From assembly GCA_021781255.1 (NCBI GenBank), contig JAJXXG010001065.1:1-16997 (forward strand): a stretch of DNA of 16,997 bases, in the 5' to 3' direction. Positions 642 to 15,589 of the stretch are shown here, piece after piece. The stretch's first letter is position 1; each line of letters starts with the position of its first letter. Position numbers and translations under genes: made by a program. Under the pieces are notes generated by a model that saw nothing but the letters and a program-made list of their open reading frames with translations, did no database searches and had not been told where the DNA came from. This DNA comes from Acidobacteriota bacterium. Lineage in GTDB: Bacteria; Acidobacteriota; Terriglobia; Terriglobales; Acidobacteriaceae.

Positions 642-740
642 TCCCTCTCTTGTGAGCCCCGCAGGAAGCGACAGCTCCGGCACGCATTCGTGCGCCTGCT
701 GTCACCGATGAATTGGCGCAATCACAAGAGAGGCTATCTC

Positions 741-3632
741 ATGCATCGTTCCGGGTTGGCAGTGTTCCTGCGGCAAGTTGTTCCGCTAGTCTTTTTCCTC
801 AACCTTTTCCATCCGTATGCGTCGGCGCAGTCCGGCGTGACCTTCGGCAGCATCTCGGGTACGGTCACAGATACGTCTGGAGACCTGGTCTCCGGAGCTC
901 ATATCACGGTCTCCTCGCTTGATAACGCGATTCAGCGCAACGCGACCACCGACAGCGATGGCACGTTTGTCATCCTCAATCTGCCGAGTAAAAGCTATCA
1001 GCTCGCGATCTCAGCTACTGGCTTTGCCGTCTGGCAAAATGCCTCTGTCGCTGTAGCGGTTGGGCGGAACACCGGCGTCATCGTGAGCCTGGCTCCGGCA
1101 CGCGCCACGCAACAGGTCACCGTCCAGTCGCAAACCGAGGCGCTCGACATTTCCCAGACCTCTCCGGTAGCGAACATCGACCGGGACCGCATCGAGGAAC
1201 TCCCTATCCCCAGCCGCAACTATCTCAATTTCGCACTGCTTGCCCCGGCAATCGCCGCAGCCAATCCGGCACTCGCGCGGCAAACACCGGGAGCGGAGAC
1301 CGGCGGCTTCAGCGCAGGCGGCCTGCGTCCCACGAGCAACGCGCTTTATATTGACGGCACCGACGACAACGATGAATACACGGGCTTGAGCCGCACGGAA
1401 CTCTCGCCGGAGGCTATCAGCGACTTCCAGATCGTAAACCATGGATATGCCGCACAGTCTGGCGGGTCGGCAGGCGGCTCAGTGGACGTAGAGACGCGCG
1501 CGGGCGGGAATCTCCGGCACGGTGACGCATTTCTATTCGTGCAGAATGGCGCTCTGAACAGCACACCCGCTTTGGAGGCTGTCCCTCGCAAACCCGACGA
1601 AAATCGCCTTCGGGCAGGGCTTTCCACCGGAGGCCGCATCGAAAGAAGCCGCCTCTTCTATTACCTCGCGGGTGAGCAGGAACTGGCGCGCGGCGAAGAC
1701 GCGAGCGACCTCAGTCCGGCGCTCGCCGCCACCATCGACGAAGCCATAAATCAGGCAGGCCCTCTGCGCGGCTTTCGCCTGCAGCAGGGGTTCTTTCCTA
1801 CCACAAATGAGGAGACTGAGCTTTCCGGCCGGGTGGACCGCAACTCCGCAACCCATAGCCTCATGGTTCGCTATGCGCTTACCAACAACCGTTCCGTCAA
1901 CGACGCTTTCCATACCGACGACATCTCCGACTTGAGCACGCGGGGGTCGGCGTTCTACGACGACAACAGCATCAGCGGCTCCTGGAATTGGACGCTCTCA
2001 CCGCAGATGCTCAACCAGCTCGACTTCGAGGTCGCGCAGCGGCGCGTTGATCTGCGAACAGCATCAACACAGGAGCCAGGCGTCATTGTCGCAGGCGTCG
2101 CCCAGTTCGGCATGCCCTGGGATGGAAATAGCCGCCGCTATGAAACGCACATCGATGTTGGCGACAGTTTTATCCGGCAGTATGGTAAGCACCTCGTTCA
2201 GGCTGGCATCGCTGCCAGCCACATCGCGCTGCGCTCCGCTGATGCCGGAGGATTCCAGGGCCTGTATGTCTTTCCTTCCCTGGTCGCTCTCTCAGCCGCG
2301 CATCCGGATTTCTACACCCAGAACTTCGGGGATCCCGATACCAACTTCAGCGAACTGCGCACCGCGGCATGGATTCAGGATCACTGGTCGCTGTCGCCCC
2401 GCCTCGCACTGGATTACGGCTTGCGCTACGAGGACAACCGCTTACCCTCATCGCTGCCGCAGCACCCGTTCAATTTCAGTCCACGCTTGGGCTTCGCCTG
2501 GTCGCCGTCGAAATCCTGGGTCGTGCGCGGAGGCTTCGGCATCTTCTTCGATCGTTACCTGCTCTCCACCATCAATCGCATCGAGGAATTCAACGGCGTG
2601 CACGCCCAGCAGCAGATTGTTGACGGCGCCAAAGCCGCTTCTCTCTATCAGTCCGGCCAGATTTTCACTGCGCCTTTTTCCGGCGCTGCGCCGAGCGTCT
2701 GGCAGGCGCAGTCTGGGTTGGCAAATCCCTATGCGGAATCGGGATCGCTCGGCGTCGAGCATCAACTGCACGCGCAATGGACCGTCAGCGCCGAATATCG
2801 CTTCGTTCACGGTGTAAAGTTGGGACGCACCATCAACAGCAACCTCGCGCCCCCGGTCCTTCTCACCACGCAGAACGCTTCCAGCCTTGGGATTCCTGAT
2901 CCCACACCGCAGCAGCTTGGCCGCCTGGTTTTTTCCCCGCAACGCCTCAATCCGGCATTCGATGCCATCAATCAGTTTCAGACCGAATCAGGTTCGGACT
3001 ACAACGGTGCAACGCTGACAGTTAACCGGCAGTTCACTGAGGGGTTCGAGCTGATGGCTGGCTACACCTTCTCCAAAACCGTCGATGACGCTTCGAGCGA
3101 TGCCGAGCAGCCGCAGAATCCCTATGATCTGGCGCAGGAGAGGGCGCCGTCACTGGACGATCAGCGCCATCGATTCGTGATGAGCGGTCTCTGGGTAATT
3201 GGTCCCATCCTGGATGACCCCGAAGATGCTGCCCGCGCGGCAAAACCAAATGCATTCCAAAAGGTTGTGCGTGGCCTGGAATTTGCTCCCATTCTCCAGG
3301 CGGACAGCGGCTTCCGCGATAACGCATTGACAGGCGTGGACAGCAATCGCGAGCAAAGCTATCCTTTCGAGGCCCGGCCGCTCGGATACGGACGCAACAG
3401 TTTGCACACGCCGCCGCAGTTACATTTCGATCTTCGTGTGCTGAGGATGGTGCCGATCTGGCGTGGACATCTCGACATTGTTGCCGAGTCCTTCAATCTT
3501 CTCAACCGCCAGAACGTGAATCTCGTGAATCCGGTATATGGAGCGAATGCGCAGGCGGCGCCGAATTTTCTCATGCCGCTTCAGGAGTCAGACGCGCGGA
3601 GAATTCAGTTCTCTCTGGATTTTGAATATTGA
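741..3632 (+). CDS. TonB-dependent receptor, Oar-like, with carboxypeptidase-regulatory-like domain
   Basis: This is an outer-membrane beta-barrel receptor that would import a ligand using TonB energy; the substrate is unknown. The open frame reaches a GTG at 690 and an ATG at 708, but ATG 741 is preferred. AGAGAGG at 727-733 sits 7 nt before it, and the protein then opens with a clean signal peptide (about residues 1-29, ending YASA-Q). After the signal comes a carboxypeptidase-regulatory-like beta-sandwich (about 35-115; GSISGTVTDTSGDLV, later TDSDGTFVILNLP). A plug-like segment follows (about 140-260; LPIPSRNYLNFALLAP, NALYIDGTDDND), then a long barrel ending in a C-terminal aromatic residue (FSLDFEY). 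The length of 963 aa fits the family common in Acidobacteriota. It is transcribed towards the cytochrome genes and has no evident operon partner downstream. Confidence 0.88.
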   Translation: MHRSGLAVFLRQVVPLVFFLNLFHPYASAQSGVTFGSISGTVTDTSGDLVSGAHITVSSLDNAIQRNATTDSDGTFVILNLPSKSYQLAISATGFAVWQNASVAVAVGRNTGVIVSLAPARATQQVTVQSQTEALDISQTSPVANIDRDRIEELPIPSRNYLNFALLAPAIAAANPALARQTPGAETGGFSAGGLRPTSNALYIDGTDDNDEYTGLSRTELSPEAISDFQIVNHGYAAQSGGSAGGSVDVETRAGGNLRHGDAFLFVQNGALNSTPALEAVPRKPDENRLRAGLSTGGRIERSRLFYYLAGEQELARGEDASDLSPALAATIDEAINQAGPLRGFRLQQGFFPTTNEETELSGRVDRNSATHSLMVRYALTNNRSVNDAFHTDDISDLSTRGSAFYDDNSISGSWNWTLSPQMLNQLDFEVAQRRVDLRTASTQEPGVIVAGVAQFGMPWDGNSRRYETHIDVGDSFIRQYGKHLVQAGIAASHIALRSADAGGFQGLYVFPSLVALSAAHPDFYTQNFGDPDTNFSELRTAAWIQDHWSLSPRLALDYGLRYEDNRLPSSLPQHPFNFSPRLGFAWSPSKSWVVRGGFGIFFDRYLLSTINRIEEFNGVHAQQQIVDGAKAASLYQSGQIFTAPFSGAAPSVWQAQSGLANPYAESGSLGVEHQLHAQWTVSAEYRFVHGVKLGRTINSNLAPPVLLTTQNASSLGIPDPTPQQLGRLVFSPQRLNPAFDAINQFQTESGSDYNGATLTVNRQFTEGFELMAGYTFSKTVDDASSDAEQPQNPYDLAQERAPSLDDQRHRFVMSGLWVIGPILDDPEDAARAAKPNAFQKVVRGLEFAPILQADSGFRDNALTGVDSNREQSYPFEARPLGYGRNSLHTPPQLHFDLRVLRMVPIWRGHLDIVAESFNLLNRQNVNLVNPVYGANAQAAPNFLMPLQESDARRIQFSLDFEY

Positions 3633-3853: not shown

Positions 3854-5803
3854 CTATTTCTCCTGCGTGGTCTTCGAATCGGGGCCGTTGGTTTCCGCGA
3901 TCGACTCCTTATCCAGCTCGTGCTCGTTGCGATATTGCTCGACCGGCATCTTGCCGTCCCACCAGGCCCAGTTCATGGGATAGACATGGGGATCGAAGAA
4001 GACCTCGTAGAAGTGCCAGACAAGAATGGCGAGCGTGGCCAGGATGGCCTCATAGAAATGGACGGCGGTAGCCACATCGACCCACCAGCGCGCCAGCAGG
4101 TTGCCGACCCAAACCTTGGCCCAGAGCATGATGCCGGTAAGGCCCATCAGCGCCGTGCCCCAGACCAGCGCCCAGTACTCGGTCTTTTCACGGTAGGTGA
4201 AGCGGCCAAACTTCGGCTTCTGCGTGCTCAGCCCGAGATAGTAGCGCATCGTGCCCCACGCGTCGAAGGCGTCCTGGGGCCGGGGCGCGATATCGCGCAC
4301 CAGCCGCCGGCCCTCGCGCGCGATAGCGATATAGAAGACGTGATAGATGCCGGCGCCGATTAACACGCAGCCCGCGATCCGATGGATGATGCTGCGTAGG
4401 TGCTCGCCCATTCCGAGCGTGTGGGCGTACCAGGTGTCGGGGAACTTGAGCGCGAAGCCGGTGATGACCAGAATGATGAAGCTGCTGAGCAGAACCAGAT
4501 GCTGCCAGCGCTGATTCGCGGTCATGCGCACCATGAACGGGCTCTGCGAGCGCCGCCGCGCGACTGCTGTGCTGAGCCAGATGATGGTGTTGTGCAGAAG
4601 CATGGCGCCGATAATGAGCAGGATAAGAGGGATGTAGATCCAACGCACCCAACGGACAGCGATAGAACCGATGCCGCCGGAGCGGGCCCCCTCCTGGAGA
4701 TGGACTGGCGTGCGCGTGAACTTCTGCGTGACGCCTTTGTGGCACTTGCCGCAGGTGGCGTCGAGATTGGCGGGATTGATGGTGGAGCGGGGATCGCTGG
4801 AGGGCAGGATGTTATGGACGCCGTGGCAGCTCGAACAGTTGGCGACGATGACTGAGCCGCCTTTGGCGGCCAGGCCGTGATAGCTGTCGAAGTATGTTGT
4901 TACGCGTTCGCCGGAAACGCCGAACTCCTGCGACAGCCGCACTCCCTCGTGGCAGCGGGCGCAAGTGTCGTGAGAAAGATTCCACGCTGCGACGGGCGAG
5001 CTGGGCTTGGACGGGGCCCTGATGGTGTGGATTCCGTGGCAGTCAGTACACGTGGGGGCCAGTTGGTTACCGCGCGCGAGAGCCTGCCCGTGAATGCTCT
5101 GCTTGAAAGTGTCATCGATATCCGTGTGGCACTTGCCGCAGGTGACGGGCACGTTGAATTTGGAAATCGGCGATTTGGGGTCGTTGGCGGGAAGAATCTC
5201 GTGCGCCCCATGACAATCGGTGCAGACCGCGGCCTTTTGCGAACCGTTGGCGACGGCGCGGCCGTGCACGCTGTCGAGATAGGAGAAGAAGGGCTGCACG
5301 CTCACGCCGTATGTCTCCATGACAAACTTTTGCCCGTGGCAGCGGCCGCAGGTGGCGGGAATGTTGGCGTGATTGATGGGCGAATTGGGATCGCCGGCGC
5401 CCTCAATTTGGTGAACGTTGCCGTGACAGTCCTGGCAACTGGCGGGAACTTTCCCGCTCGCGTCTACCTTCGCGTGGACGCTGTGCGCGTAGGCCTGACC
5501 GGCGTCGGTATGGCACTGCGAGCAGCTTACCTTTTGCGGGGGCGTCTCGTGCGTCAGGCTCGTCACGTCCTTGTGGCAATCCACGCAGGTAAACACGCGG
5601 CCGTGGATGGAATGTTTGAGCTTGCTCTCGTCGACGTAGAGGCTGACCGTCGCGCCGTTCCCGTCCGCGGTGGTGAGGGTGGGGTCGGAGTGGCAGGCTA
5701 GGCAGTCCGCGTCCTCGAGTTTCTGCGCGGCGTGTGCCGTGGTGGCCCAGGCAAGAACCGAGAAAAGCAGCGCTTGCGTACGGAATCTTCGCGCGGGATT
5801 CAC
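3854..5803 (-). CDS. Fused 11-heme cytochrome c / cytochrome b quinone oxidoreductase (CbcL-like architecture)
   Basis: This is likely an inner-membrane quinol:cytochrome c module that moves electrons between menaquinol and periplasmic acceptors. With a GTG start at 5803 the protein is 649 aa. It has a signal peptide (1-25, ending AHA), then eleven CxxCH heme-binding motifs (first at 34-38, last near 365), then a b-type cytochrome domain from about 383 to 620. That domain has five or so membrane helices and candidate heme-ligand histidines in WQH, IIHR, IYHV, AVHF and VWHF. The open frame continues to a TTG at 5977, but the extra residues do not look like a signal peptide and include a regulatory-like site shared with the paralogous gene. 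The GTG has no good Shine-Dalgarno, so the start stays uncertain. It is a full-length paralogue of the two adjacent genes 8219-7005 and 7012-6149 combined. Geobacter CbcL is known to join multiheme c and b domains; function here is by analogy. Confidence 0.85.
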   Translation of the reverse strand: MNPARRFRTQALLFSVLAWATTAHAAQKLEDADCLACHSDPTLTTADGNGATVSLYVDESKLKHSIHGRVFTCVDCHKDVTSLTHETPPQKVSCSQCHTDAGQAYAHSVHAKVDASGKVPASCQDCHGNVHQIEGAGDPNSPINHANIPATCGRCHGQKFVMETYGVSVQPFFSYLDSVHGRAVANGSQKAAVCTDCHGAHEILPANDPKSPISKFNVPVTCGKCHTDIDDTFKQSIHGQALARGNQLAPTCTDCHGIHTIRAPSKPSSPVAAWNLSHDTCARCHEGVRLSQEFGVSGERVTTYFDSYHGLAAKGGSVIVANCSSCHGVHNILPSSDPRSTINPANLDATCGKCHKGVTQKFTRTPVHLQEGARSGGIGSIAVRWVRWIYIPLILLIIGAMLLHNTIIWLSTAVARRRSQSPFMVRMTANQRWQHLVLLSSFIILVITGFALKFPDTWYAHTLGMGEHLRSIIHRIAGCVLIGAGIYHVFYIAIAREGRRLVRDIAPRPQDAFDAWGTMRYYLGLSTQKPKFGRFTYREKTEYWALVWGTALMGLTGIMLWAKVWVGNLLARWWVDVATAVHFYEAILATLAILVWHFYEVFFDPHVYPMNWAWWDGKMPVEQYRNEHELDKESIAETNGPDSKTTQEK

Positions 5804-6148
5804 GGCAACACAATGAATCTTCGGAAGAAATGCCGCAGTGCGCTGAATCACAAGGGGGTGCTCGTGGGTCACATCGGAGTTGGAATCGGGAATCCTTTCC
5901 CGCAATGCGCCATTGAGCCCGGAAGAATGCGTCTTCTGCAAAAAAAGGGTTACCAAATTCTGTTTGAGATTGGTCAAGGTCGCCGCTCACGGTTGGTCGC
6001 GGCGGGTTGGCAGCCATGCCTCCGGGGGCCACCGGCCCTGGTTTTGCTATTGGCGCGCAACCGCGCCCTTCCTGTGTCCGGTTCCCGTGCGCGAGGAACG
6101 CGAAAAAACGGATCATCGAGGTTGTTGTGGCCCGCTGACCCTCCGTTC
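5804..6148. other. Intergenic region between the split and fused cytochrome modules
   Basis: No gene is called in these 345 bases. An open minus-strand frame runs through part of it, joined to the fused cytochrome gene (to 5977), but shows no domain. The region contains the near-palindromic site at 5838-5851 and probably the promoter of the fused gene. A run of seven A (T on the minus strand) at 5940-5946 lacks a convincing preceding stem, so no terminator for the upstream operon is called. Confidence 0.4.
5838..5851 (-). promoter_or_regulatory. Near-match CRP-like site upstream of the fused cytochrome gene
   Basis: On the minus strand the bases read GTGATTCAGCGCAC, matching GTGA-N6-TCAC at 7 of 8 positions. 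The flanks resemble those of the exact site at 8362-8375: both minus-strand copies have CTTGTGATT before and CACTGCG across the second half-site, followed by an AT/TTCTTC segment. This suggests the two cytochrome promoters share ancestry. The site lies 35 nt upstream of the GTG chosen as start. Confidence 0.4.
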
Positions 6149-7012
6149 TCACCCGAAATACGCGGTCAGCGTTAGCACCAGAAGCAACAACCCGATGAAG
6201 ATGGCAGTGAATCCGACCACTCTGGAGAAGTTGACCTCCCAGGCCCCCGGCGCCACGGCGAGACGCTTCTCCAGCTTTCCTGTTCTGGCAGCCCTCTCGT
6301 ACTCCAGGGGACGCTTGTGTATGAACTCTTCTTCGCTCTCCACGCCGGTGAAGATCACCATGTCCATGGGAAAGCTGTGGGGTCGCAGATGGGTGTTGAC
6401 GAAGTGGATGGAAAAGATGAAGAGAATGGCGAGCAAGCCCTCTTCCGAGTGAATCACCAGCACGGCGTTCAGCGCCCAGCCGGGCAGGAATTGCGCGAAA
6501 AACGGAGCGAACCACATGGCGTAGCCGGAGAAGCCGATGACAATCATGCCCCAAAAGACGGCCCAGTAATCGAACTTTTCCCAATAGGAGTAGCGCTCGA
6601 ACTGCGGCCTGGGGCCGAGGCCGAGGAACCAGCGAAAATGCCCGAGCAGGTCCTTCACATCCTTCCAGTTGGCCACCATCGAGTCTGGCCCCCAGAAAAC
6701 CCCCTTGTCGCGATGCACAAGACTGCGTTGAAAGACCTCTTTCACATGGATCAGGAATGCGATGGTCAACACGGACGCCCAGAACTTATGGAGGAAGAGA
6801 ATGGTGCCGAAGCCGCCCATGTCGAGCGCTAACTTGCGCGCCCAGAAGCTCTCGCTGAAGCGCATGGTCAGACCCGTCGCCGCCAGGACGAGAAAGGCGG
6901 TGAACAGCGTCGCGTGGAGAAATCGCTGCCCGGCCGTGAAACGCACGAAGTACCGGCCCTTCGTGTCACTGCGTTCTCCGCCATTCTTCGTTGCTTCTTC
7001 CAAATCAGGCAT
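6149..7012 (-). CDS. Membrane cytochrome b subunit (split module)
   Basis: This is a b-type cytochrome, likely the quinone-reactive membrane subunit that works with the 11-heme cytochrome encoded just upstream. The start ATG at 7012 is chosen because AGAAGGAGG ends 5 nt before it; the frame also reaches an in-frame codon at 7051 that would overlap the upstream gene more deeply. ATGCCTGA overlaps the stop of the upstream gene by 8 nt, which implies translational coupling. The 287 aa contain about five hydrophobic helices and candidate heme-ligand histidines in RFLHATL, FLHKFW, LIHVKEV, VIHSEEG and SIHFVN. It is homologous to the C-terminal half of the fused protein: compare FVRFTAGQRFLH with MVRMTANQRWQH, and the paired motifs YWEKFDYWAVFWG and YREKTEYWALVWG. 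There is an additional C-terminal helix (about 265-285) with no match in the fused protein. Confidence 0.85.
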   Translation of the reverse strand: MPDLEEATKNGGERSDTKGRYFVRFTAGQRFLHATLFTAFLVLAATGLTMRFSESFWARKLALDMGGFGTILFLHKFWASVLTIAFLIHVKEVFQRSLVHRDKGVFWGPDSMVANWKDVKDLLGHFRWFLGLGPRPQFERYSYWEKFDYWAVFWGMIVIGFSGYAMWFAPFFAQFLPGWALNAVLVIHSEEGLLAILFIFSIHFVNTHLRPHSFPMDMVIFTGVESEEEFIHKRPLEYERAARTGKLEKRLAVAPGAWEVNFSRVVGFTAIFIGLLLLVLTLTAYFG

Positions 7013-8219
7013 CGTTTCCTCCTTCTTTTGACCGGTTCTTGATTTGTTCATAGCGTGAACGGATCATCCACAGGAGGGTATGAATAACAAAGAAAGTAAG
7101 CACGCTGATCAGCAGCAAGTTCATAAACAGCCGCACAAGGTAGAGGCCCGGATTCAGCTTAATGTCGTGCGGGTCGGCATGGGGCTGATACTCCACAAAG
7201 CTGGCGTTGGCGCCCGGGTGGCACCTGCCGCAGGTTTTCACCAGGCTGGCTTTATTGATGGACGAGTTCGGATCCGACGCGGGCCTCACATCGTGCGCCT
7301 CGTGGCAGTCCCAGCAGCGCGCCGTCTGCACGTAACCGCCCAGCAAGCCCAACTGCGAATGGAAGGTGTCGTGGTAGGTGGAGAGTTTGGCCTCGTGGCA
7401 CGAGCCGCAAATCGGCGTGGACTGCATGCGGAAGGCCGATTCAGTGGGCTGCAGAATGGCGTGCGCGGTGTGGCAGTCGGTGCACACCGGGGCCTTCAGA
7501 TTGCCGTCGGCCACGGCTTTGCCGTGGATGCCCGCCTCGTATTTCGCTTCGATGCTCGCGTGGCACTTGCCGCAGGTAGCTGCAATATTGGTTTTGTAAG
7601 TGGGGCTCTGCGGATTGTTGGGGCTGAGAATCTGGTGCGAGCCGTGGCAACTCTGGCAGTTGGCCGCCACCAGCAATCCCCCCTGGCTCACCGCATCCCC
7701 GTGGATCGAGTCCATGTACTGCGGAAACACGTTGGGCAGGCCGTACTTCTTGGCCAGCGCCGGGTTGCCGTGACACGAGCCGCAGGTGCGCGGAATGTTG
7801 AGGGGATAGACGTTCGATCTTGGATCGCCATTGGGAAAGATTTCGTGGGCGTTGCCGTGGCAACTGGTGCAGGAATGCTCCTTCCCGTCAGAATGGACGC
7901 TGGTGGCCAATGCCGATGCCTGATCGGCGTGGCACGTCTTGCACTGAACGGGAGCGATGTGCTCGGGGTGCGGATATCCCTTGATGCCGGTATGGCAGTT
8001 GTTGCATTGCAGGCTGCCGTGAATGCTGTCGCTGAACTTCTTGCCGTCGACGGCGATGCTGTGTCCAGCGGCGTCGGTCATGCTCGCGTCGCCGTGGCAC
8101 GCCAGGCAGTCAGTTTGCGCTCGCAAGGCGCCGGGCGCAAGCGCCAAAATGGCAAGACTGGCCGCCGCCACTCCGCTACGGACGAAAAATAAAGTTCTAT
8201 TGAATGCGGCTTGGATCAT
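7005..8219 (-). CDS. 11-heme c-type cytochrome with C-terminal membrane anchor (split module)
   Basis: This is a periplasmic multiheme electron carrier tethered to the inner membrane. It begins at ATG 8219, after AAGGAAG about 8 nt upstream. Residues 1-34 form a signal peptide (ending ALRA-Q). Eleven CxxCH motifs follow, the first at 38-42 (CLACH), then CNNCH, CKTCH, CTSCH, CGSCH, CQSCH, CGKCH, CTDCH, CGSCH, CWDCH and CGRCH. A single membrane helix lies near 358-385, followed by a short basic tail. The spacing of hemes and the linker motifs (DSIHG, GDPRSN, PATCGKC-type) parallel the N-terminal half of the fused protein, so the two are paralogues. It stops inside the start of the cytochrome b gene (8-nt overlap), which argues that the two products form one complex. 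The last acceptor (outer-membrane conduit, soluble cytochrome, metal) is not shown by the sequence. Confidence 0.88.
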   Translation of the reverse strand: MIQAAFNRTLFFVRSGVAAASLAILALAPGALRAQTDCLACHGDASMTDAAGHSIAVDGKKFSDSIHGSLQCNNCHTGIKGYPHPEHIAPVQCKTCHADQASALATSVHSDGKEHSCTSCHGNAHEIFPNGDPRSNVYPLNIPRTCGSCHGNPALAKKYGLPNVFPQYMDSIHGDAVSQGGLLVAANCQSCHGSHQILSPNNPQSPTYKTNIAATCGKCHASIEAKYEAGIHGKAVADGNLKAPVCTDCHTAHAILQPTESAFRMQSTPICGSCHEAKLSTYHDTFHSQLGLLGGYVQTARCWDCHEAHDVRPASDPNSSINKASLVKTCGRCHPGANASFVEYQPHADPHDIKLNPGLYLVRLFMNLLLISVLTFFVIHTLLWMIRSRYEQIKNRSKEGGNDA

Positions 8220-8460: not shown

Positions 8461-8883
8461 TTATTGCATCCGAATCACCGTCACCACGGTGATATAGTCC
8501 TGTTGGCCGAACTGCTGCCCTTCGGCGGCGATTTCGTTGGCCGTGCGGCTCTGTTGCACCAGCTCTGCCGCGCGCTCAAACCCGAACAGCTCACCTTTGA
8601 CGTTGCGCGCCTCGACCACGCCATCGGTAAGCAGCGGCAGCCGGTCTCCGGCTTGCAGTTGGAAAGCGGTTTCGCCGTATTCGGCGCCCACGCTCGACCC
8701 CAGCGGAAGGCTGTTGGTCACGGCCATGCCGTCGCCGGGGTGAAAGAAGGCCCAGTGCCCGGTCAGGACAACCACCGAATTGCCGATGACGGCATCGACT
8801 GGCGGCCTTTGCGCAAGGGTAGCGGGAAGATTGGCAAATGTGAAAGCGGAAAAGGCAAGCAGAGCGGCGAATCTCGAAAGCAT
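8461..8883 (-). pseudogene. Truncated SpoIIE-type (PP2C-like) phosphatase remnant
   Basis: The frame encodes only a signal-peptide-like start (MLSRFAALLAFSAFTFANLP, ending in an ATLAQ-type cleavage site) joined directly to the last part of a SpoIIE phosphatase domain. The recognisable pieces are PLG, the AGDRLPLLTDGVVEARN segment with GELFGFE, and FGQQDYITVV near the C-terminus. In intact relatives a membrane region and the first part of the catalytic domain lie between these, and the last motif is normally DD-ITV. Here the second, metal-binding Asp is Tyr. The product of about 140 aa would lack most of the active site. I read it as an internally deleted, inactive gene; a secreted short protein of other function is the alternative. 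ATG 8883 is chosen because it opens the signal peptide. Confidence 0.6.
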
Positions 8884-9057
8884 TGTCTGCCTGGCGGATA
8901 CAGTCCTGCAGCACGCTGGAATAAGGGACAGATCAGCATACAGCACCTTGAATAAATGGCAACTGGAGTTCTTCGAGGAATAAAATAAGAGAGAATAGAG
9001 GGTATCTTCCTTTCCTTTTTCTCCGCTTGGAGTGAAAAGTGTGTGGTGTGCTTTGAG

Positions 9058-9071: not shown

Positions 9072-9125
9072 ACCTTGCGCGCTTCCGGGTCGAGGAAAAT
9101 CGAGGTGCGGATTGAGGACGCTGGT

Positions 9126-11339
9126 ATGAGCGTAGATGTGGCTTCTGAAACGAAAATCATGCTAACCCTCCCAGGGGATGCGGTGCGGCAGATTCTTTGG
9201 CGCTACGCCGACCGGTTCGACCTGCAGATGCTGGTGCAATCGGCGCGCGGGGTGGCGAGGGGCACGGTGGCGCGCCTGGTTGCCGCCGGAGAGCGCAACA
9301 CCCACGAGTGGACCGCGGGCAAAGAAGAGATGATGGACGCCTTCGACCGCGCCGGAATCACGGCAGCTTTTATGGAGCCGGAAGAGGGCGGATTCATCAT
9401 TGGTCCCAAGAATCTTGCGCTTGGTCTGGCTGCCTACGAGCTTGCATGGGTCGACGGCGGCGCAGCCACTGCCAGTTTGGCCGGCTTTCTCGCCCTTTCG
9501 CCTATCCATGAGCGCGGCACACAGGAACAAGTTACCCGCTACAAAACGCTCTCTGCTCCTCCGCAGCCCGGCGAAGACCGCAAGCCCTGGCGAGGAGCCT
9601 TTGCGCTCACCGAGCCCATACCCTACGTGGGCGTGGATGCCGGCATGTTGAGCGGCAAGCTGCGCGTGGCCGAGTGGAAAGACGGCGCAGAGCCTATTCT
9701 GCAAGTGGACAAGCGCGGCCGATTCATTACCGGAATTGCATTTGCCAACTTCGTCACTGCGGCGGTGAACTCCGACGACCCCCGCATCAAGGGCAGTTGC
9801 ATGGTCATCATGGAAGAGGGCGACGAAGGCATCTACGACCGTGGCACCGCCACCAAGAAGCTGGTGCACCAGCTCTCCTCGACAGGCGATCCCGTCTTCA
9901 ACCTCAAGGTTCCGGCCAGCCGCATCATTGGCGGCTATACGGTGAAAGACGGCACGATCGTGCCCAACTTCAACCACAGCGAAGTGATCGACGCGGTCTT
10001 CCGCCGCACCCGCGTGCCGGTGGGCCTGATGACGGCGGCCAAGCTGCTTTCGGCGGTCGAGCCGGTGATCCGCTACCAGCGCCAGCGATTCCGCGGCGCC
10101 GAGGGCGCCAAGCCCGGCTCTGTGCGCTACGAACAGGGCATCCAGCAGCGCGAAGACGCGCTGCACCGCCTGGTGGATGTGTGGGCTGCCGGCGAGGCGG
10201 CATCGTCGCTGGGCTTTGCCGCGGCGCGGCTGTTTGACGTGCTCGATCCTCTGGAAAAGCAAAAAACAGCGATCCTGAAAGAGCGCGGCGTCCTGGGCGG
10301 GCGCGCTGAAATGAAGGCGCTCAAGGAGAGCGAGCAGTGGGCCGTCGAGTTGATGGAGATTGAGGAAGACAGCCCTCGCCGCACGGTGCTCGAATCCGAT
10401 CCGCTGGTGCAATATGTGCTGAAAGACGCCGAGGCCAACGTGCTGTGCCCGGCAACCAAGCTCTGGAACACCGGCCACGGTGCCAACATGATGCGCGAGG
10501 CAGTCAGCCTGATGGGCGGTTACGGCATCACTGAAGACTGTCCCGGTTTCCTGGCCAACAAGTGGATGGACGCGCAGCTCGAAGCCACCTATGAAGGCCC
10601 TGAAGCCGTGCAGCGCCGCCAGTTGACCGTCACCATGACCTCCGAAGTCTTCCTTGCCCAGTTCCGCGCCTGGACGCGCGAGATGCGCAAGATTGCCAGC
10701 GACCATCCCGGCAGCGGCGCCTGCACGCTGGCTTCGGCCATGAACCTGTGGGCGTGGACGCTGAACTATCTGCAAAAATCCACTGACCCGTCGGGCGCCA
10801 AGCTCTATCACGGGCAGCGGCAGGGCGTGACCTTCGCCCTGGCCGATGCGCTCAGTTGGCTGATGGCATCGCGCTGCCAGATTCTCGACGTGCTGGAACT
10901 GGAGACGCGCGGAGCCACCGATGCCGTAGCCGCCGAAGGACTGGAAGGGACTGTGCAATTCCTGAGCGACCTGTGCCACACGCAGGCGGCGCAGGCGGCC
11001 GGCGAGGTTTCGCGCATCTGCGCCGAGCTGGTCTTCGGCTATAACCGGCATCCGGCGTGGGACGACGAAGAGCACAGAAACTGCTTTCTCGCGAGCGAGC
11101 TGGAAGAGCTGGAAGAGACGATGCCGGGCATCACAGCCATGGCGGTGGACGTGCTGGAGGCAGACGGCAGCCATCCGCAAAAGGCCGGGCCATGTGCAAG
11201 CTGCGCGGGGGCGAGCGAGTTCCTCCGCCTGCAGAGCAGATTGACGATGTGCCTGAGCGGCGCGCGGCTGGCCAAGGACCGAGCCGCCGAAAACGCAAGC
11301 AAAGTGATGATTCCCGAAGCGCTGGACTACCCGGCATGA
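9126..11339 (+). CDS. Large acyl-CoA dehydrogenase family flavoprotein, 737 aa
   Basis: This is an FAD enzyme of the acyl-CoA dehydrogenase superfamily, expected to oxidise an acyl-CoA thioester and hand electrons to ETF; the substrate is unknown. ATG 9126 is chosen because GAGG lies about 9 nt upstream. An earlier TTG at 9075 would start right beside the regulatory palindrome. Visible landmarks are a central GAFALTEP motif (about residue 157) and GGYGITED (about 464). YEGPEAVQRRQ follows (Tyr489-Glu490), where Glu490 corresponds to the catalytic-base motif YEGT of medium-chain enzymes. Ordinary family members have about 380-400 residues; here there is about 110 extra before the Glu and about 245 after it, including a C-terminal CASC (Cys-x2-Cys) segment. 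The stop overlaps the next start (ATGA), so it is translationally coupled to the ETF:quinone oxidoreductase. Confidence 0.85.
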   Translation: MSVDVASETKIMLTLPGDAVRQILWRYADRFDLQMLVQSARGVARGTVARLVAAGERNTHEWTAGKEEMMDAFDRAGITAAFMEPEEGGFIIGPKNLALGLAAYELAWVDGGAATASLAGFLALSPIHERGTQEQVTRYKTLSAPPQPGEDRKPWRGAFALTEPIPYVGVDAGMLSGKLRVAEWKDGAEPILQVDKRGRFITGIAFANFVTAAVNSDDPRIKGSCMVIMEEGDEGIYDRGTATKKLVHQLSSTGDPVFNLKVPASRIIGGYTVKDGTIVPNFNHSEVIDAVFRRTRVPVGLMTAAKLLSAVEPVIRYQRQRFRGAEGAKPGSVRYEQGIQQREDALHRLVDVWAAGEAASSLGFAAARLFDVLDPLEKQKTAILKERGVLGGRAEMKALKESEQWAVELMEIEEDSPRRTVLESDPLVQYVLKDAEANVLCPATKLWNTGHGANMMREAVSLMGGYGITEDCPGFLANKWMDAQLEATYEGPEAVQRRQLTVTMTSEVFLAQFRAWTREMRKIASDHPGSGACTLASAMNLWAWTLNYLQKSTDPSGAKLYHGQRQGVTFALADALSWLMASRCQILDVLELETRGATDAVAAEGLEGTVQFLSDLCHTQAAQAAGEVSRICAELVFGYNRHPAWDDEEHRNCFLASELEELEETMPGITAMAVDVLEADGSHPQKAGPCASCAGASEFLRLQSRLTMCLSGARLAKDRAAENASKVMIPEALDYPA

Positions 11340-13204
11340 GTTCAGCGGCACAAACGCCGGAGTCCGGTCGCCAGACGATGGAAGTCGACATCGCCTGCGC
11401 CGGCTTTGGCCCGGCGACGGGCGGATTTTTGACCACGCTGACGCAGGCTTGGAGCCAGAATCCAGCCGACCCCGCCTTCGAGAGCCGCGTTGTGCCGGGC
11501 ATGCCCCTGCAGGTGCTCTGCTACGAACGTGCCGACGATCTTGCCGCCGGCGTCAGCGGCGTGGTCACTCGCGCCGAGGGAATTCGATCCAGCTTTCCCA
11601 CGCTTGATCCGGCTGAGATTCCAATGGCTGCGACGGTCAAGCAGGAGCGCGTCTTTTACCTGCTCGATCCCATTGGCGCCAGCCGGCGCTCGGCGCTCTT
11701 GCGCTTTGGAGATTTTTTTCTTGGTCTGGGAAAAAAGTTGTGGCTGAATGACGGTGCGTTCGAGCTGCCCTGGACGCCCTCGTTTCTGCATAAGAGCGGC
11801 GGGTTGGTGCTTTCGATCGGCCAGTTCAACCAGTGGGTCGGCTCACAACTAATGGCTAGCGGGCTGGTACAGATATGGCCCGGAACTCCGGTCAGCAGCC
11901 CGATCTTCGCGGAGCATCCAAACCGTAAAAGTACAGGTGTCGTCGGGCTCCGCCTCGCCGATCAGGGCGTCGACAAGCACGGCGCGCCGGCCGAGGGATT
12001 CATGGCCGGAATGGACGTGCGCGCGCAGCTCACCGTCGTGGGTGACGGCCCCGTGGGCGCGGTCGGGCAAAAGCTCGACGAGCGCCTCGGCCTGCCCGCC
12101 GGTCACGCCCGCCGCGAATGGGCGCTGGGCATGAAGTTCGTCGTCGAGCTGCCGGAAGACACGCAGCTTGAAGCAGGCACCGTCTGGCACACCTTCGGAT
12201 TTCCCGAGCCGGAGATCTTCGGCTTTCTCTACGTGCATCCTGACCGCCTGGTCTCGGTCGGCATCTTCGTGCCTTCGTGGCTGGGCGATCCCGCGCGCAC
12301 CGTCTATCGCTACTTGCAGCATTACATCCAGCACCCGCTTCTGTGGCAGCACCTCAGGAATGGCACGCTGCGCTCGTGGGGCGCAAAGTCGCTTGAAGAA
12401 TCGGGCAAGCACGGCGAGCCGTTCCTCACAGGCGACGGGTTCGCGCGCATCGGCGAGGGCTCCGGCTCGACCAACATGCTTACCGGCTCTGGCGTGGACG
12501 AGGCGTGGACCACGGGCGTGCAACTGGGCGAAGCGGTGCTGGAGTTGCTGCGCGCCGGCAAGCCGTTCACACAGGAGAACCTGGCCGCAACCTACGAAGC
12601 ACGACGCCGCGCAAGCTGGGTGGAGCGCGGAGCACGCGAAGCCAGAAACGCGCGCAACGGTTTTCACATGGGGTTCGTACGCGGACTCGTGGGCATGGGT
12701 CTCACCGGACTCACCGGCGGCCGGCTTGCGCTCAGGACGAGCATTCCGCCCGCGCCGAAGCAGATTCGACGGGAAGGCATGACCCAGGCGGCAGGCCTCA
12801 AGCTGAAGCAGGCAGCCGCGCTGGCCGTGAATGATGGCCGTCCGCTGCACGATGCGCTGATGACCGCGCGCGGCTGGCCAGAGATTCCCTTCGACGACCG
12901 CCTGCTGGTCACGCACCAGGATGCGCTGCTGATGGGCGGCAAGGTGCAGGCCATGCCGGGATTCGCGGATCATGTCGTCTTTCTGGATAAGCGCCGTTGC
13001 ATCGCCTGCGAAGAGAAAACCTGTATCGCGATGTGTTCCGGCCAGGCCCTCGCGCTCGGCCCCGATGGCGCGCCCGCATTCGAACGCGAGAAGTGCGTGC
13101 ACTGCGGCGGCTGCCTGTGGAACTGCCCTCACTCGCCCGACGGCGAGCACAGCAACATTGAGTTCCAGGCCGGGGCGGGCGGCTTTCATTCGGCGGAGAA
13201 CTGA
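11336..13204 (+). CDS. ETF:quinone oxidoreductase-like flavoprotein with C-terminal ferredoxin region (FixC-FixX-like fusion)
   Basis: This protein should take electrons from reduced ETF through FAD and iron-sulfur centres to the membrane quinone. The start ATG at 11336 overlaps the preceding stop by 4 nt. The open frame extends upstream to 11057, but that part only shadows the dehydrogenase. Residues 18-30 form a dinucleotide-binding site (IACAGFGPATGG). A second FAD-contact segment, GSGVDEAWTTGVQLGEA, lies near 385. The C-terminus has two cysteine groups: C555, C558, C563, C567 and C587, C590, C593, C597, the second being CVHCGGCLWNCP as in ferredoxins. Classical ETF:quinone oxidoreductases keep four cysteines here for one 4Fe-4S cluster, so eight suggest two clusters. 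The length of 622 aa compares with about 550 for typical bacterial members. It resembles FixC with FixX fused. Confidence 0.82.
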   Translation: MSSAAQTPESGRQTMEVDIACAGFGPATGGFLTTLTQAWSQNPADPAFESRVVPGMPLQVLCYERADDLAAGVSGVVTRAEGIRSSFPTLDPAEIPMAATVKQERVFYLLDPIGASRRSALLRFGDFFLGLGKKLWLNDGAFELPWTPSFLHKSGGLVLSIGQFNQWVGSQLMASGLVQIWPGTPVSSPIFAEHPNRKSTGVVGLRLADQGVDKHGAPAEGFMAGMDVRAQLTVVGDGPVGAVGQKLDERLGLPAGHARREWALGMKFVVELPEDTQLEAGTVWHTFGFPEPEIFGFLYVHPDRLVSVGIFVPSWLGDPARTVYRYLQHYIQHPLLWQHLRNGTLRSWGAKSLEESGKHGEPFLTGDGFARIGEGSGSTNMLTGSGVDEAWTTGVQLGEAVLELLRAGKPFTQENLAATYEARRRASWVERGAREARNARNGFHMGFVRGLVGMGLTGLTGGRLALRTSIPPAPKQIRREGMTQAAGLKLKQAAALAVNDGRPLHDALMTARGWPEIPFDDRLLVTHQDALLMGGKVQAMPGFADHVVFLDKRRCIACEEKTCIAMCSGQALALGPDGAPAFEREKCVHCGGCLWNCPHSPDGEHSNIEFQAGAGGFHSAEN

Positions 13205-13690: not shown

Positions 13691-14503
13691 ATGGCACATG
13701 TTTTACAAATCGTTGTATGCGCTGGGATTGTACCCGATCCGCTGCAAACGCTCGAACCCACCACCACCCCGAGTGGTCCTGGGATCAAGAACGAGATGGT
13801 CTTGCCCGCGGTGCTCGACCCATGGGCTGCGAGCGCGCTCTATGAAGCCGCTGCCCTTGCCGCCAAAAACCCCGGCAGCAAGCTCTGGCTCGTCTCCCTC
13901 GGCCCCAAGGCCAAGCTGCAGCAGGTGATGATGACCGTCGCGCAGAAGGTTGCCTTCGAGCTGGTCCCCATCGACGGTCCTATCGGCGGATTTCCTGACG
14001 CGCACTCCACGGCGGCAGTGCTGGCCGAGACCATCGCAGCGCTGCCTGGTCTCGACCGCAGCAAGCTACTTATCTTCGGCGGATGGGAGTCGGCGTCGCG
14101 CGGCGCGGGCGTCACGCTGCAACTGGTGGGCGAGCGCCTTGGCATCGCTGACCAGTTTCAGGGCGTCGATCAAATTGACCTGCGCAACGATGGCTCCTTC
14201 GAGGTGCTGGAGCGCGTCGAAGGCGGCAAGCATCAGGTCTCGATTTGCGCCGGCGCGCCCGCGGTGCTGGGTTGGGCCACCGGCAACCTAGCCGAGCCGC
14301 GCAACAATCCGCAAGTAGGCATGGCGAATATGCGCACCATAATGCCGGCGCTGCAAAAGGCAAAAACGGCCGCGCTCGAAGCCAATAGCCTGAGTTACGT
14401 TTCGGTGAGTCTGCCCAAGCAGCAGCGCGAGACGCGTGTCGAGAAGAACATGACGCCCGACGAGATCGCGGCGGAGATTGTGGAGTGGCTGGGAAAAGGA
14501 TAA
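13691..14503 (+). CDS. etfB: Electron transfer flavoprotein, beta subunit
   Basis: EtfB is the small subunit of the ETF heterodimer that accepts electrons from acyl-CoA dehydrogenases. The 270-aa length and the family-like pattern support the call. The N-terminal strand reads VLQIVVCAGIVPDP, followed by the VLDPWAASALYEAAALA helix, the KLWLVSLGPK segment, and GGWESASRGAGVTLQLVGERLGI. The last corresponds to the G-x-A-x-D-x-D-T-x-x-V-G-x-x-L-A-x-x-L-G region of relatives. It is divergent there: the usual acidic residues are replaced. It sits directly upstream of etfA, as in most bacteria, but its ribosome binding site lies in a repeat array that ends 5 nt before the ATG. Whether it carries AMP (ordinary type) or a second FAD (bifurcating type) cannot be decided from what I can see. 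Confidence 0.85.
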   Translation: MAHVLQIVVCAGIVPDPLQTLEPTTTPSGPGIKNEMVLPAVLDPWAASALYEAAALAAKNPGSKLWLVSLGPKAKLQQVMMTVAQKVAFELVPIDGPIGGFPDAHSTAAVLAETIAALPGLDRSKLLIFGGWESASRGAGVTLQLVGERLGIADQFQGVDQIDLRNDGSFEVLERVEGGKHQVSICAGAPAVLGWATGNLAEPRNNPQVGMANMRTIMPALQKAKTAALEANSLSYVSVSLPKQQRETRVEKNMTPDEIAAEIVEWLGKG

Positions 14504-14563: not shown

Positions 14564-15589
14564 ATGGAATCGATTCTGGTATTGACCCACGCCGATGAAA
14601 CCGGCTCCGCGCTGAGCAAAGCCTCGCTCGAAGCGGTGACCGCGGGCAAGGAGCTGGCTGCGCGAACGGGCGCGGCGCTGATCGTCGGGATTGTGGCGGA
14701 GGATGCGGCTGGCGCGGCAAGCGCAGTTGCCGGGGCCGGAGCGCGCTTGCTGGGCGTGCAAGGTGAGGCATTCGCGCAGGCACGCTATTCGAGCGATGCT
14801 GCGGCCTGCGAAGCTCTTTGCCGCGCGGCGAACGCATCGATCGTTATCGCTCCGCAGAGCTCGCGTTTTGCGCGGGTGATGGCAGGCGTCGCGCATCGCG
14901 TGGGCGGATTGATCGATTCGCATATTACGGCGATTGCCGGGGCGGACGGAATTGAGGCCGCGCGCTGGTTTTACCGCCAACGCATTGAGGCTGTGGTCAG
15001 CCGCGCGGCGCGTCCGTGGTTTCTGCTGCTCGACGCAGGCACGCATGCTGCCTATGCCGCCGAACCCGCCGCGGCGCCGGTCGAACAGATCGCCGTCGAA
15101 CTTCCGGCGCTGCGCACAACTGTGACCGGGCTGAAAGCGCCCAAACAGGATGAGCAGACCATTCGGCCGGATGCGAAGCTGCTCTTCGTCGCCGGAGCGG
15201 GCTGGACCAAGAAGCAGCCCGACGGACAGGTTCACGTTGCGGAAGCAGGCGAGTTGATCTTGAAGTTCCTGCGCGCCTCGGGCGCATCGCTGGGCAGCTC
15301 CAAATCGTTGGTGGATCAGGGCGGCGAAGGGAACTCCGTTCTTCCCTTTCTGACGCATTTGAACCAGGTGGGACAAACCGGCTCGACGCCGCGCCACGCC
15401 AAGGGTCTTGCAACCTGCTGCCATGGCGAGGAGCCGCATGTGGTAGGCTGGCGGTTCATCGGTGAGCGTCGCGCTGTTTCGCTCGATCCCAACTGCGGCT
15501 GGACGCGCGGCAAGGCCGATGTGGTCTACGTAGCAGATGCCTTCCAGGTGATGGCGAAGGTGAATGAGATGGTTGGGGGCAGGCAGTAG
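14564..15589 (+). CDS. etfA: Electron transfer flavoprotein, alpha subunit (divergent)
   Basis: EtfA binds the FAD that exchanges electrons with the dehydrogenase and with the ETF:quinone oxidoreductase. The start ATG at 14564 follows GAGG by about 8-10 nt, and the protein has 341 aa, a normal length. The C-terminal FAD domain is recognisable by LGSSKSLVD (243-251) and NQVGQTG (267-273), with His292 in the position of the QH of ordinary members. It is atypical: the conserved Arg of the GASR motif is Lys247. The GISGAIQH segment is replaced by ATCCHGEEPH, with two adjacent cysteines (285-286). The usual I-N-x-D motif also differs (VSLDPN, about 307-312). In studied ETFs the Arg helps stabilise the reduced flavin, so redox properties may be altered here (inference). 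The 60-nt gap to etfB has a T-rich stretch but no clear terminator. Confidence 0.85.
   Translation: MESILVLTHADETGSALSKASLEAVTAGKELAARTGAALIVGIVAEDAAGAASAVAGAGARLLGVQGEAFAQARYSSDAAACEALCRAANASIVIAPQSSRFARVMAGVAHRVGGLIDSHITAIAGADGIEAARWFYRQRIEAVVSRAARPWFLLLDAGTHAAYAAEPAAAPVEQIAVELPALRTTVTGLKAPKQDEQTIRPDAKLLFVAGAGWTKKQPDGQVHVAEAGELILKFLRASGASLGSSKSLVDQGGEGNSVLPFLTHLNQVGQTGSTPRHAKGLATCCHGEEPHVVGWRFIGERRAVSLDPNCGWTRGKADVVYVADAFQVMAKVNEMVGGRQ

What the first reader, a model, noticed from the sequence alone, without database searches (positions are those of the whole stretch)
3854..8219. Paralogous respiratory modules, one split and one fused, side by side
The 11-heme cytochrome (8219-7005) plus cytochrome b (7012-6149) are together collinear with the single fused protein (5803-3854). 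All have matching heme number (eleven), the same linker motifs, and a membrane helix after heme 11. The b-domain starts are equivalent (FVRFTAGQRFLH versus MVRMTANQRWQH). In the split pair the junction is an 8-nt overlap, ATGCCTGA, just after that helix, so the pair shows exactly where a gene fusion or fission happened after a tandem duplication. Fused multiheme-c/b proteins such as Geobacter CbcL are known; a tandem split and fused pair with the same heme count is not one I recall. Different redox potentials or acceptors for the two modules are a natural idea (inference).
Basis: partly seen in the sequence, partly recalled or inferred. Interest (0 to 1): 0.72.

Follow-up and report, generated by a model that had tools for sequence, protein, structure and literature searches.

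The report
Two ancient cytochrome modules, side by side
A DNA fragment, probably from an Acidobacteriota bacterium, carries two versions of what looks like an electron-export module, one as two genes and one as a single fused gene; they match part for part, but they separated very long ago and are not a fresh duplication caught in the act of splitting.

Summary
SPc (8219-7005) and SPb (7012-6149) align end to end with FU (5803-3854). All 11 CxxCH motifs, 11 distal and five b-domain histidines correspond; the 8-nt overlap is real.

The evolutionary reading does not hold. SPb is 29% identical to FU's b-part but 49-79% identical to split-b genes in 80 loci, some outside Acidobacteriota. Trees put the modules in two deep clades (b-part 100/100, c-part 89); local duplication is rejected (p-AU 1.3e-35). 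By parsimony fission or fusion happened at least four times, in both clades. Equal heme number and the overlap (55 of 76 loci) are old shared traits.

Most likely both are quinol:cytochrome c oxidoreductases of the CbcL/MtoC/MtrH kind with FdnI-like b-domains; SP groups with fused nine-heme CbcL-like proteins, FU is a separate, mostly five-helix clade. Relatives sit beside MtrA/MtrB-like conduits or divergently from acyl-CoA dehydrogenase/ETF genes. Export and different potentials are inferred; phylum-wide co-occurrence with MtrB-like porins is not significant (p=0.12). New variant of a known kind.

The parts
7005..8219 (-). SPc: secreted 11-heme c-type cytochrome (404 aa) with one C-terminal membrane helix; c-subunit of the split module
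   Evidence: 11 CxxCH; 11 distal His among the invariant columns of 22 aligned sequences; model helix 357-398, mean pLDDT 91-97 over residues 361-390
6149..7012 (-). SPb: cytochrome b561-type membrane subunit (287 aa); b-subunit of the split module
   Evidence: PF01292 3e-12 (on the 300-aa frame); weak match to FdnI 1kqf_C (E 0.025; 0.0013 with a profile); close relatives begin at the same ATG
7005..7012 (-). 8-nt overlap ATGCCTGA of the SPc stop and SPb start
   Evidence: sequence; the last 8 bases of the c-gene fit start-codon...TGA in 55 of 76 loci
7050..7151 (-). SPc membrane helix (TM0, residues about 357-390) with conserved His380
   Evidence: His380 in 69 of 75 SP-clade tails, the other 6 gapped in that alignment
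6158..6226 (-). C-terminal hydrophobic helix of SPb, absent from FU
   Evidence: alignment and hydropathy
3854..5803 (-). FU: fused 11-heme c / cytochrome b protein (649 aa)
   Evidence: 11 CxxCH; PF01292 1.9e-12; hits at E<=1e-60 in 92 of 199 Acidobacteriota genomes (some of these are SP-type c-part hits)
4547..4672 (-). FU TM0 helix (residues 378-419) with conserved His404, equivalent to SPc His380
   Evidence: model; His in the His404 column 81 of 88 in the FU clade; the pairwise alignment is one residue out here
3989..4531 (-). FU b-domain (residues about 425-605) with His435, 474, 488, 582, 597
   Evidence: Foldseek top hit of the whole FU model is FdnI 1kqf_C, probability 1.00, E 5.6e-3
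9075..11339 (+). acyl-CoA dehydrogenase-like gene, divergent from the cytochrome genes
   Evidence: PF00441, PF02771; divergent neighbour in 21 of 64 loci
11360..13204 (+). ETF:quinone oxidoreductase-like protein with C-terminal ferredoxin motif (start codon not settled)
   Evidence: PF21162 9.4e-9; present in 16 of 48 loci with enough upstream sequence
13691..14503 (+). electron transfer flavoprotein, beta-like
   Evidence: PF01012, NF040731 far below its cut-off
14564..15589 (+). electron transfer flavoprotein, alpha-like
   Evidence: PF01012 9e-15

Best explanation
The window holds two anciently diverged members of one superfamily of inner-membrane quinol:multiheme-cytochrome c oxidoreductases (the CbcL/MtoC/MtrH kind). 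In each, a membrane b-domain with an FdnI-like ligand set takes electrons from the quinone pool and passes them to an 11-heme periplasmic chain whose hemes can all be bis-His. SPc/SPb is a split member of the clade that also holds fused 9-heme CbcL-like and 18-23-heme proteins; FU belongs to a second clade, mostly fused and mostly with five membrane helices. In the rows examined the c and b parts have travelled together since before the two clades parted, while the gene boundary between them, just after the first membrane helix, has been lost or gained several times. The modules stand side by side in many Acidobacteriota. Their likely job is to drain electrons, in this lineage plausibly including those that acyl-CoA dehydrogenase/ETF/ETF:QO put into the quinone pool, into periplasmic cytochromes and on to an outer-membrane decaheme/porin conduit. 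Shown: anatomy, homology, ligand positions, trees, synteny. Inferred: direction of flow, quinone type, acceptor, different working potentials.
For: Heme and ligand correspondence. The four positions aligned to FdnI His18/57/155/169 are His in at least 77 of 78 (SP) and 87 of 88 (FU) rows (that these residues are FdnI's heme ligands is recalled). Foldseek top hit of the FU model is FdnI. b-tree: SP and FU separate at 100/100 in 54 rows; c-tree: same two groups, one change, support 89, 151 rows. Neighbours: 10-heme cytochrome + MtrB_PioB porin (2.5e-60) + SP + FU + NapC/NirT-like cytochrome in one run in L115; 15 of 15 tested genomes that carry the SP module (one of them the source of the queries) also encode a decaheme/barrel pair, 59-214 bp between the two matches; ACAD divergent in 21 of 64 loci. 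Published: CbcL and CbcBA as quinol oxidases, mtrH/mtoC beside mtrAB (passages).
Against: Across 199 sampled Acidobacteriota genomes FU-type hits and MtrB-like porins do not co-occur significantly (32 of 92 with versus 26 of 107 without, Fisher p 0.12). The 15 genomes are kin, mostly one family, so that co-occurrence is not independent. The modules stand apart from a conduit in many loci: a 9-11-heme cytochrome upstream in only 16 of 49. No outer-membrane conduit was identified in the window and its own genome is not held. No function of a close relative was found measured. The c-part split has SH-aLRT 89, under 95. The first part of the FdnI alignment is weak (domain E 2.1). FU lacks the sixth helix that CbcL has.
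Confidence: 0.75

Rival explanations
1. One reading: a recent tandem duplication of one c+b module in this lineage, followed by one fusion or fission, with the overlap marking the exact place.
For: Adjacency, same heme number, collinearity.
Against: 29% (b) and 42% (c) identity between the modules against 49-79% for split-b relatives over several phyla; b-tree and c-tree; p-AU 1.3e-35 against holding the two together; 11 motifs is simply the commonest count in both groups of the c-tree (56 of 66 SP and 58 of 85 FU rows, the window's own rows included).
Confidence: 0.02
2. The modules feed periplasmic enzymes (for example nitrite, peroxide or oxygen reduction through c-type cytochromes) rather than extracellular acceptors.
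For: NapC/NirT-like genes near the modules in L016, L115 and L113, and cytochrome bd further downstream in L016; most FU-hit genomes of the phylum sample (60 of 92) gave no hit to either MtrB-like query.
Against: Direct linkage to 10-heme cytochrome and porin genes in some lineages and their presence in 15 of 15 related genomes tested.
Confidence: 0.2
3. The modules run in reverse: they take electrons from periplasmic or extracellular donors and reduce quinone.
For: Homologues occur in Fe(II) oxidisers and both directions have been proposed (MtoC; CbcBA in Seep-SRB2).
Against: The divergent neighbours look like quinone-reducing beta-oxidation genes, which calls for a quinol outlet (inference).
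Confidence: 0.15

Closest known systems
CbcL of Geobacter sulfurreducens (PMC9129911, passages)
   Same: Periplasmic multiheme c-domain followed by a membrane b-domain; c-hemes bis-His; six helices, as SPc+SPb together if SPb has FU's four plus its C-terminal one (the simple hydropathy count calls six segments in SPb); fused 9-heme CbcL-like proteins group with SP in the b-tree
   Different: 9 c-hemes, one polypeptide; the window's SP has 11 and is split; FU has 11, five helices and lies in the other clade
CbcBA of G. sulfurreducens (Joshi 2021, not read; passages in PMC9129911, PMC12307469, PMC10553843)
   Same: A second inner-membrane bc-type quinone oxidoreductase in an organism that also has CbcL, used at another potential
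   Different: Lower heme count and two-gene make-up (recalled); no sequence compared here
MtoC/MtrH and the wider CbcL/MtoC/MtrH survey (PMC6295460, passages and section 10)
   Same: 3-23 CX2CH, membrane domain with conserved His, sometimes beside mtrAB/mtoAB; homologues 28.6-100% identical
   Different: Survey lists 2 Acidobacteria homologues and describes single polypeptides; most have six helices, FU five
Mco of ANME-2 archaea (PMC9012536, passages)
   Same: Split cytochrome b plus 7-11-heme cytochrome in one cluster, proposed membrane-carrier:cytochrome c oxidoreductase
   Different: b-subunit is VhtC-like, archaeal, methanophenazine; not compared by sequence here
FdnI, cytochrome b subunit of formate dehydrogenase N (1kqf_C)
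   Same: b-domain with His at the four aligned ligand positions; top Foldseek hit of FU
   Different: No multiheme c partner; works with formate dehydrogenase (recalled)

Membership tests
CbcL/MtoC/MtrH superfamily | N-terminal multiheme c-domain (3-23 CxxCH) collinear with a C-terminal b561-type membrane domain | tested here: met
   FU as one chain; SP as two chains
CbcL/MtoC/MtrH superfamily | c and b parts in one polypeptide | tested here: not met
   Met by FU, not by SP, which is split; fused members of the SP clade exist (15 of 78 rows). SP is therefore called a split relative, not a member
CbcL/MtoC/MtrH superfamily | conserved transmembrane His as possible b-heme ligands | tested here: met
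   Four FdnI-position His at least 77/78 (SP) and 87/88 (FU); a fifth 73/78 and 85/88
CbcL proper (Geobacter) | nine c-hemes | tested here: not met
   11 in SPc and in FU
CbcL proper (Geobacter) | six membrane helices | tested here: inconclusive
   By simple hydropathy FU has 5 (76 of 84 fused FU-clade rows give 5); SP-clade fused rows give 6 in 10 of 15 and 5 in 5; counts for the 63 split SPb rows scatter from 3 to 7
CbcL proper (Geobacter) | orthology with G. sulfurreducens CbcL | tested here: inconclusive
CbcBA | split c plus b pair orthologous to CbcA/CbcB | not tested
   no CbcBA sequence in hand
Formate dehydrogenase gamma subunit (FdnI, TIGR01583) | scores over the curated cut-off | tested here: not met
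   31.4 and 35.5 bits against a cut-off of 115.85; none of the nine window proteins scanned matched a formate dehydrogenase catalytic subunit

The most novel reading that the evidence does not exclude
Both clades keep, besides the four FdnI-type ligands, a second His 14 residues further along helix 2 (SPb His89, FU His488; 73 of 78 and 85 of 88 rows) and a His in the first membrane helix, which in the split module belongs to the c-chain (SPc His380, FU His404). By the FdnI topology (recalled) both should lie in the cytoplasmic half of the membrane. They could carry a third b-heme, or form a quinone site, shared between c- and b-chain. That would explain why this helix stays on the c-chain in the split SP modules and why no reshuffling of c and b parts between the clades was seen in 151 rows, although the gene boundary itself is labile.
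Probability: 0.22. Interest if true: 0.6.

Novelty: new variant of a known kind. Interest (0 to 1): 0.42.

Why it matters
Inner-membrane quinone oxidoreductases such as CbcL are considered among the best genome markers for extracellular electron transfer (PMC12977616, passage), yet the 2018 survey lists only 2 CbcL-type proteins in Acidobacteria, while a 199-genome sample here gives 92 with FU-type or SP-type hits. Knowing that there are two deep families, that either may be split or fused, and that both often sit together helps against misannotation (one label in use is cytochrome b subunit of formate dehydrogenase) and gives a testable idea for how bacteria that dominate many soils discharge electrons from fatty-acid oxidation.

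Tried and rejected
Own-genome search: no genome held. Recent duplication: rejected. That the split chains of L186/L187 are split FU orthologues: not kept, since they form a long branch outside both clades. Phylum-wide co-occurrence with MtrB-like porins: not significant. Pfam finds nothing in the L016 barrel at E 0.001, so that protein itself was used as query. Naming the CbcL-like 9-heme rows: not possible, genomes unnamed. The SPc model resembles hydroxylamine oxidoreductases only weakly (E 6.4e-4, TM 0.32) and nothing is built on it. The structure tools gave no coordinates, so His-His distances were not measured. Papers: nothing on a tandem SP/FU pair in Acidobacteriota was seen in nine searches, of which I saw listings and, for eight papers, passages (plus one section of PMC6295460); no paper was read whole.
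Full report
OBSERVATION. The three genes are as described. SPc has 11 CxxCH motifs and a single helix after heme 11; SPb is a b561-type membrane protein (PF01292 3e-12) that overlaps it by ATGCCTGA; FU is one chain with 11 CxxCH and a b-domain (PF01292 1.9e-12). In the pairwise alignment 11 of 11 motifs, 11 of 11 distal His of SPc and 5 of 5 b-domain His correspond. Identity is 42% for the c-part and 29% for the b-part, far above shuffled controls. Two differences were not in the finding: FU has 11 more residues between hemes 9 and 10 (and 4 more between 8 and 9), and SPb has a C-terminal helix that FU lacks.

RELATIVES. Protein searches gave close relatives of FU, SPc and SPb (best 120 listed of 7997, 5943 and 3153 hits; only the candidates sharing most words were scored). 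Among the few hits with an organism name, Terracidiphilus MAGs are the commonest, so the window is probably from an Acidobacteriaceae; its own genome is not held. Where the contig is long enough a multiheme c-gene stands just upstream, mostly with 11 motifs.

TREES. Of 274 b-domain candidates 3 fragments were left out for length, giving 271; 190 were kept after thinning near-copies. Two deep clades result: FU, 88 rows (SH-aLRT 96), and SP, 78 rows (99); 24 rows lie outside both. A 54-row tree, rows picked by hand after seeing the larger one, separates the groups at 100/100; holding the Acidobacteriaceae FU and SP rows together (18 rows) costs 296 log units (p-AU 1.3e-35); holding all 21 split rows together is also rejected (p-AU 6e-06); the split/fused state needs at least 4 changes, or 7 on the larger tree, of which starred branches force 4. 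The SP clade holds 63 split and 15 fused rows (9-heme CbcL-like, 11-, 12- and 18-23-heme); the FU clade 84 fused and 4 split (one of these, L051, lacks most of its c-part and may be broken). The c-part tree gives the same two groups with one change, support 89 (151 rows; 4 rows without a found c-partner, and those with fewer than 8 or more than 13 motifs, left out). So in these rows each c-part has stayed with its b-part, while the gene boundary is labile. The two window modules descend from a duplication far older than this lineage; 11 motifs is the commonest count in both groups (56 of 66 and 58 of 85 rows, window included), so matching number says little.

JUNCTION. The last 8 bases of the c-gene fit the same overlap in 55 of 76 loci; 8 of the other 21 end in ATGA, a possible 4-nt overlap (that the b-gene really starts there was not checked locus by locus). 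It is a conserved trait of the family around the window, not a scar.

SYNTENY. FU lies within 6 kb downstream of the split pair in 25 of 71 loci with enough sequence (23 same strand with 11 motifs, 1 opposite strand, 1 with a cut c-part); FU-type proteins lie upstream in 9 of 49 (8 with 13 motifs); a 9-11-heme cytochrome stands further upstream in 16 of 49; acyl-CoA dehydrogenase is divergent in 21 of 64, 14 of which also have FU downstream. In 18 genomes chosen because they carry SP or both, a b-search finds both types in 16, on one contig within 10 kb each time; G001 and G020 gave SP only. L115 runs: 10-heme cytochrome, MtrB_PioB porin, 19-heme SPc, SPb, FU, NapC/NirT-like cytochrome. Of 20 genomes with the SP module 8 have an MtrB_PioB match. 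Of 15 of these, all 15, the source of the queries included, have a decaheme cytochrome and an L016-type barrel with 59-214 bp between the two matches. Against this, over 199 sampled Acidobacteriota, FU-type hits and porin hits are not significantly associated (p 0.12).

MECHANISM. The b-domains align to FdnI with His at its four ligand positions (ligand role recalled; the first part of that alignment is weak) and FdnI is the top Foldseek hit of the FU model (mean pLDDT 78.5; E 5.6e-3, probability 1.00, TM 0.59 on the target, rmsd 7.8). All 11 c-hemes can be bis-His. The simplest reading is quinol oxidation by the b-domain and transfer to the c-chain and beyond. Neighbouring acyl-CoA dehydrogenase, ETF and ETF:QO-like genes would fill the quinone pool. 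Direction, acceptor and potential are inferred. An additional conserved His pair, one in the first membrane helix and one in helix 2, is unexplained and is the basis of the novel case.

KNOWN. CbcL has nine c-hemes, six helices and a di-heme b-domain and is needed for acceptors of low potential; a CbcBA mutant stops Fe(III) reduction at -210 mV (PMC9129911, passages; also PMC12307469, passages). CbcL/MtoC/MtrH homologues carry 3-23 motifs and may stand beside mtrAB (PMC6295460, passages and section 10). Mco of ANME-2 is another split b plus 7-11-heme unit (PMC9012536, passages). A tundra-soil study proposed Acidobacteria as Fe reducers from decaheme genes (PMC3669403, passages). PMC10553843, PMC12977616 and PMC12133095 were seen in passages.

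VERDICT. Real, correctly read anatomy; wrong evolutionary story; a new variant within a known kind of respiratory module.

Noticed in passing
window 8461-8946 (-): 161-aa C-terminal piece of a SpoIIE-type phosphatase (PF07228 6.8e-13, profile positions 100-165 of 192), probably a gene remnant between the ACAD gene and SPc.
   Followed up: partly
L161 7536-15606; also L117, L118, L162, L191, L192; L195 (fused gene on the other strand) and L114 (fused gene last): Recurrent array: FU-type fused 10-13-heme protein, 11-heme c (not seen as a separate ORF in all), b, 9-heme c, b, and in most a 16-17-heme c: a multi-module respiratory cluster whose split b-genes form further groups outside SP and FU.
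   Followed up: partly
L016 1936-5534: Decaheme cytochrome beside an 859-aa barrel-like protein that matches no Pfam family at E 0.001, yet has relatives in 15 of 15 related genomes (itself included) and 14 of 199 of the phylum sample.
   Followed up: partly
window 690-3632 (+): TonB-receptor-like outer-membrane protein with carboxypeptidase regulatory domain (PF25183, PF13620), convergent with FU.
   Followed up: no
L113 5172-8165, L185 7085-10249, L190 4374-8762: SP-clade fused proteins with 19-23 heme motifs, roughly doubling the c-chain.
   Followed up: no
L186 8341-10469, L187 8713-11792: 11-heme c plus a b-gene on a very long branch outside both clades, beside a fused 18-19-heme SP-clade protein; origin unclear.
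   Followed up: no
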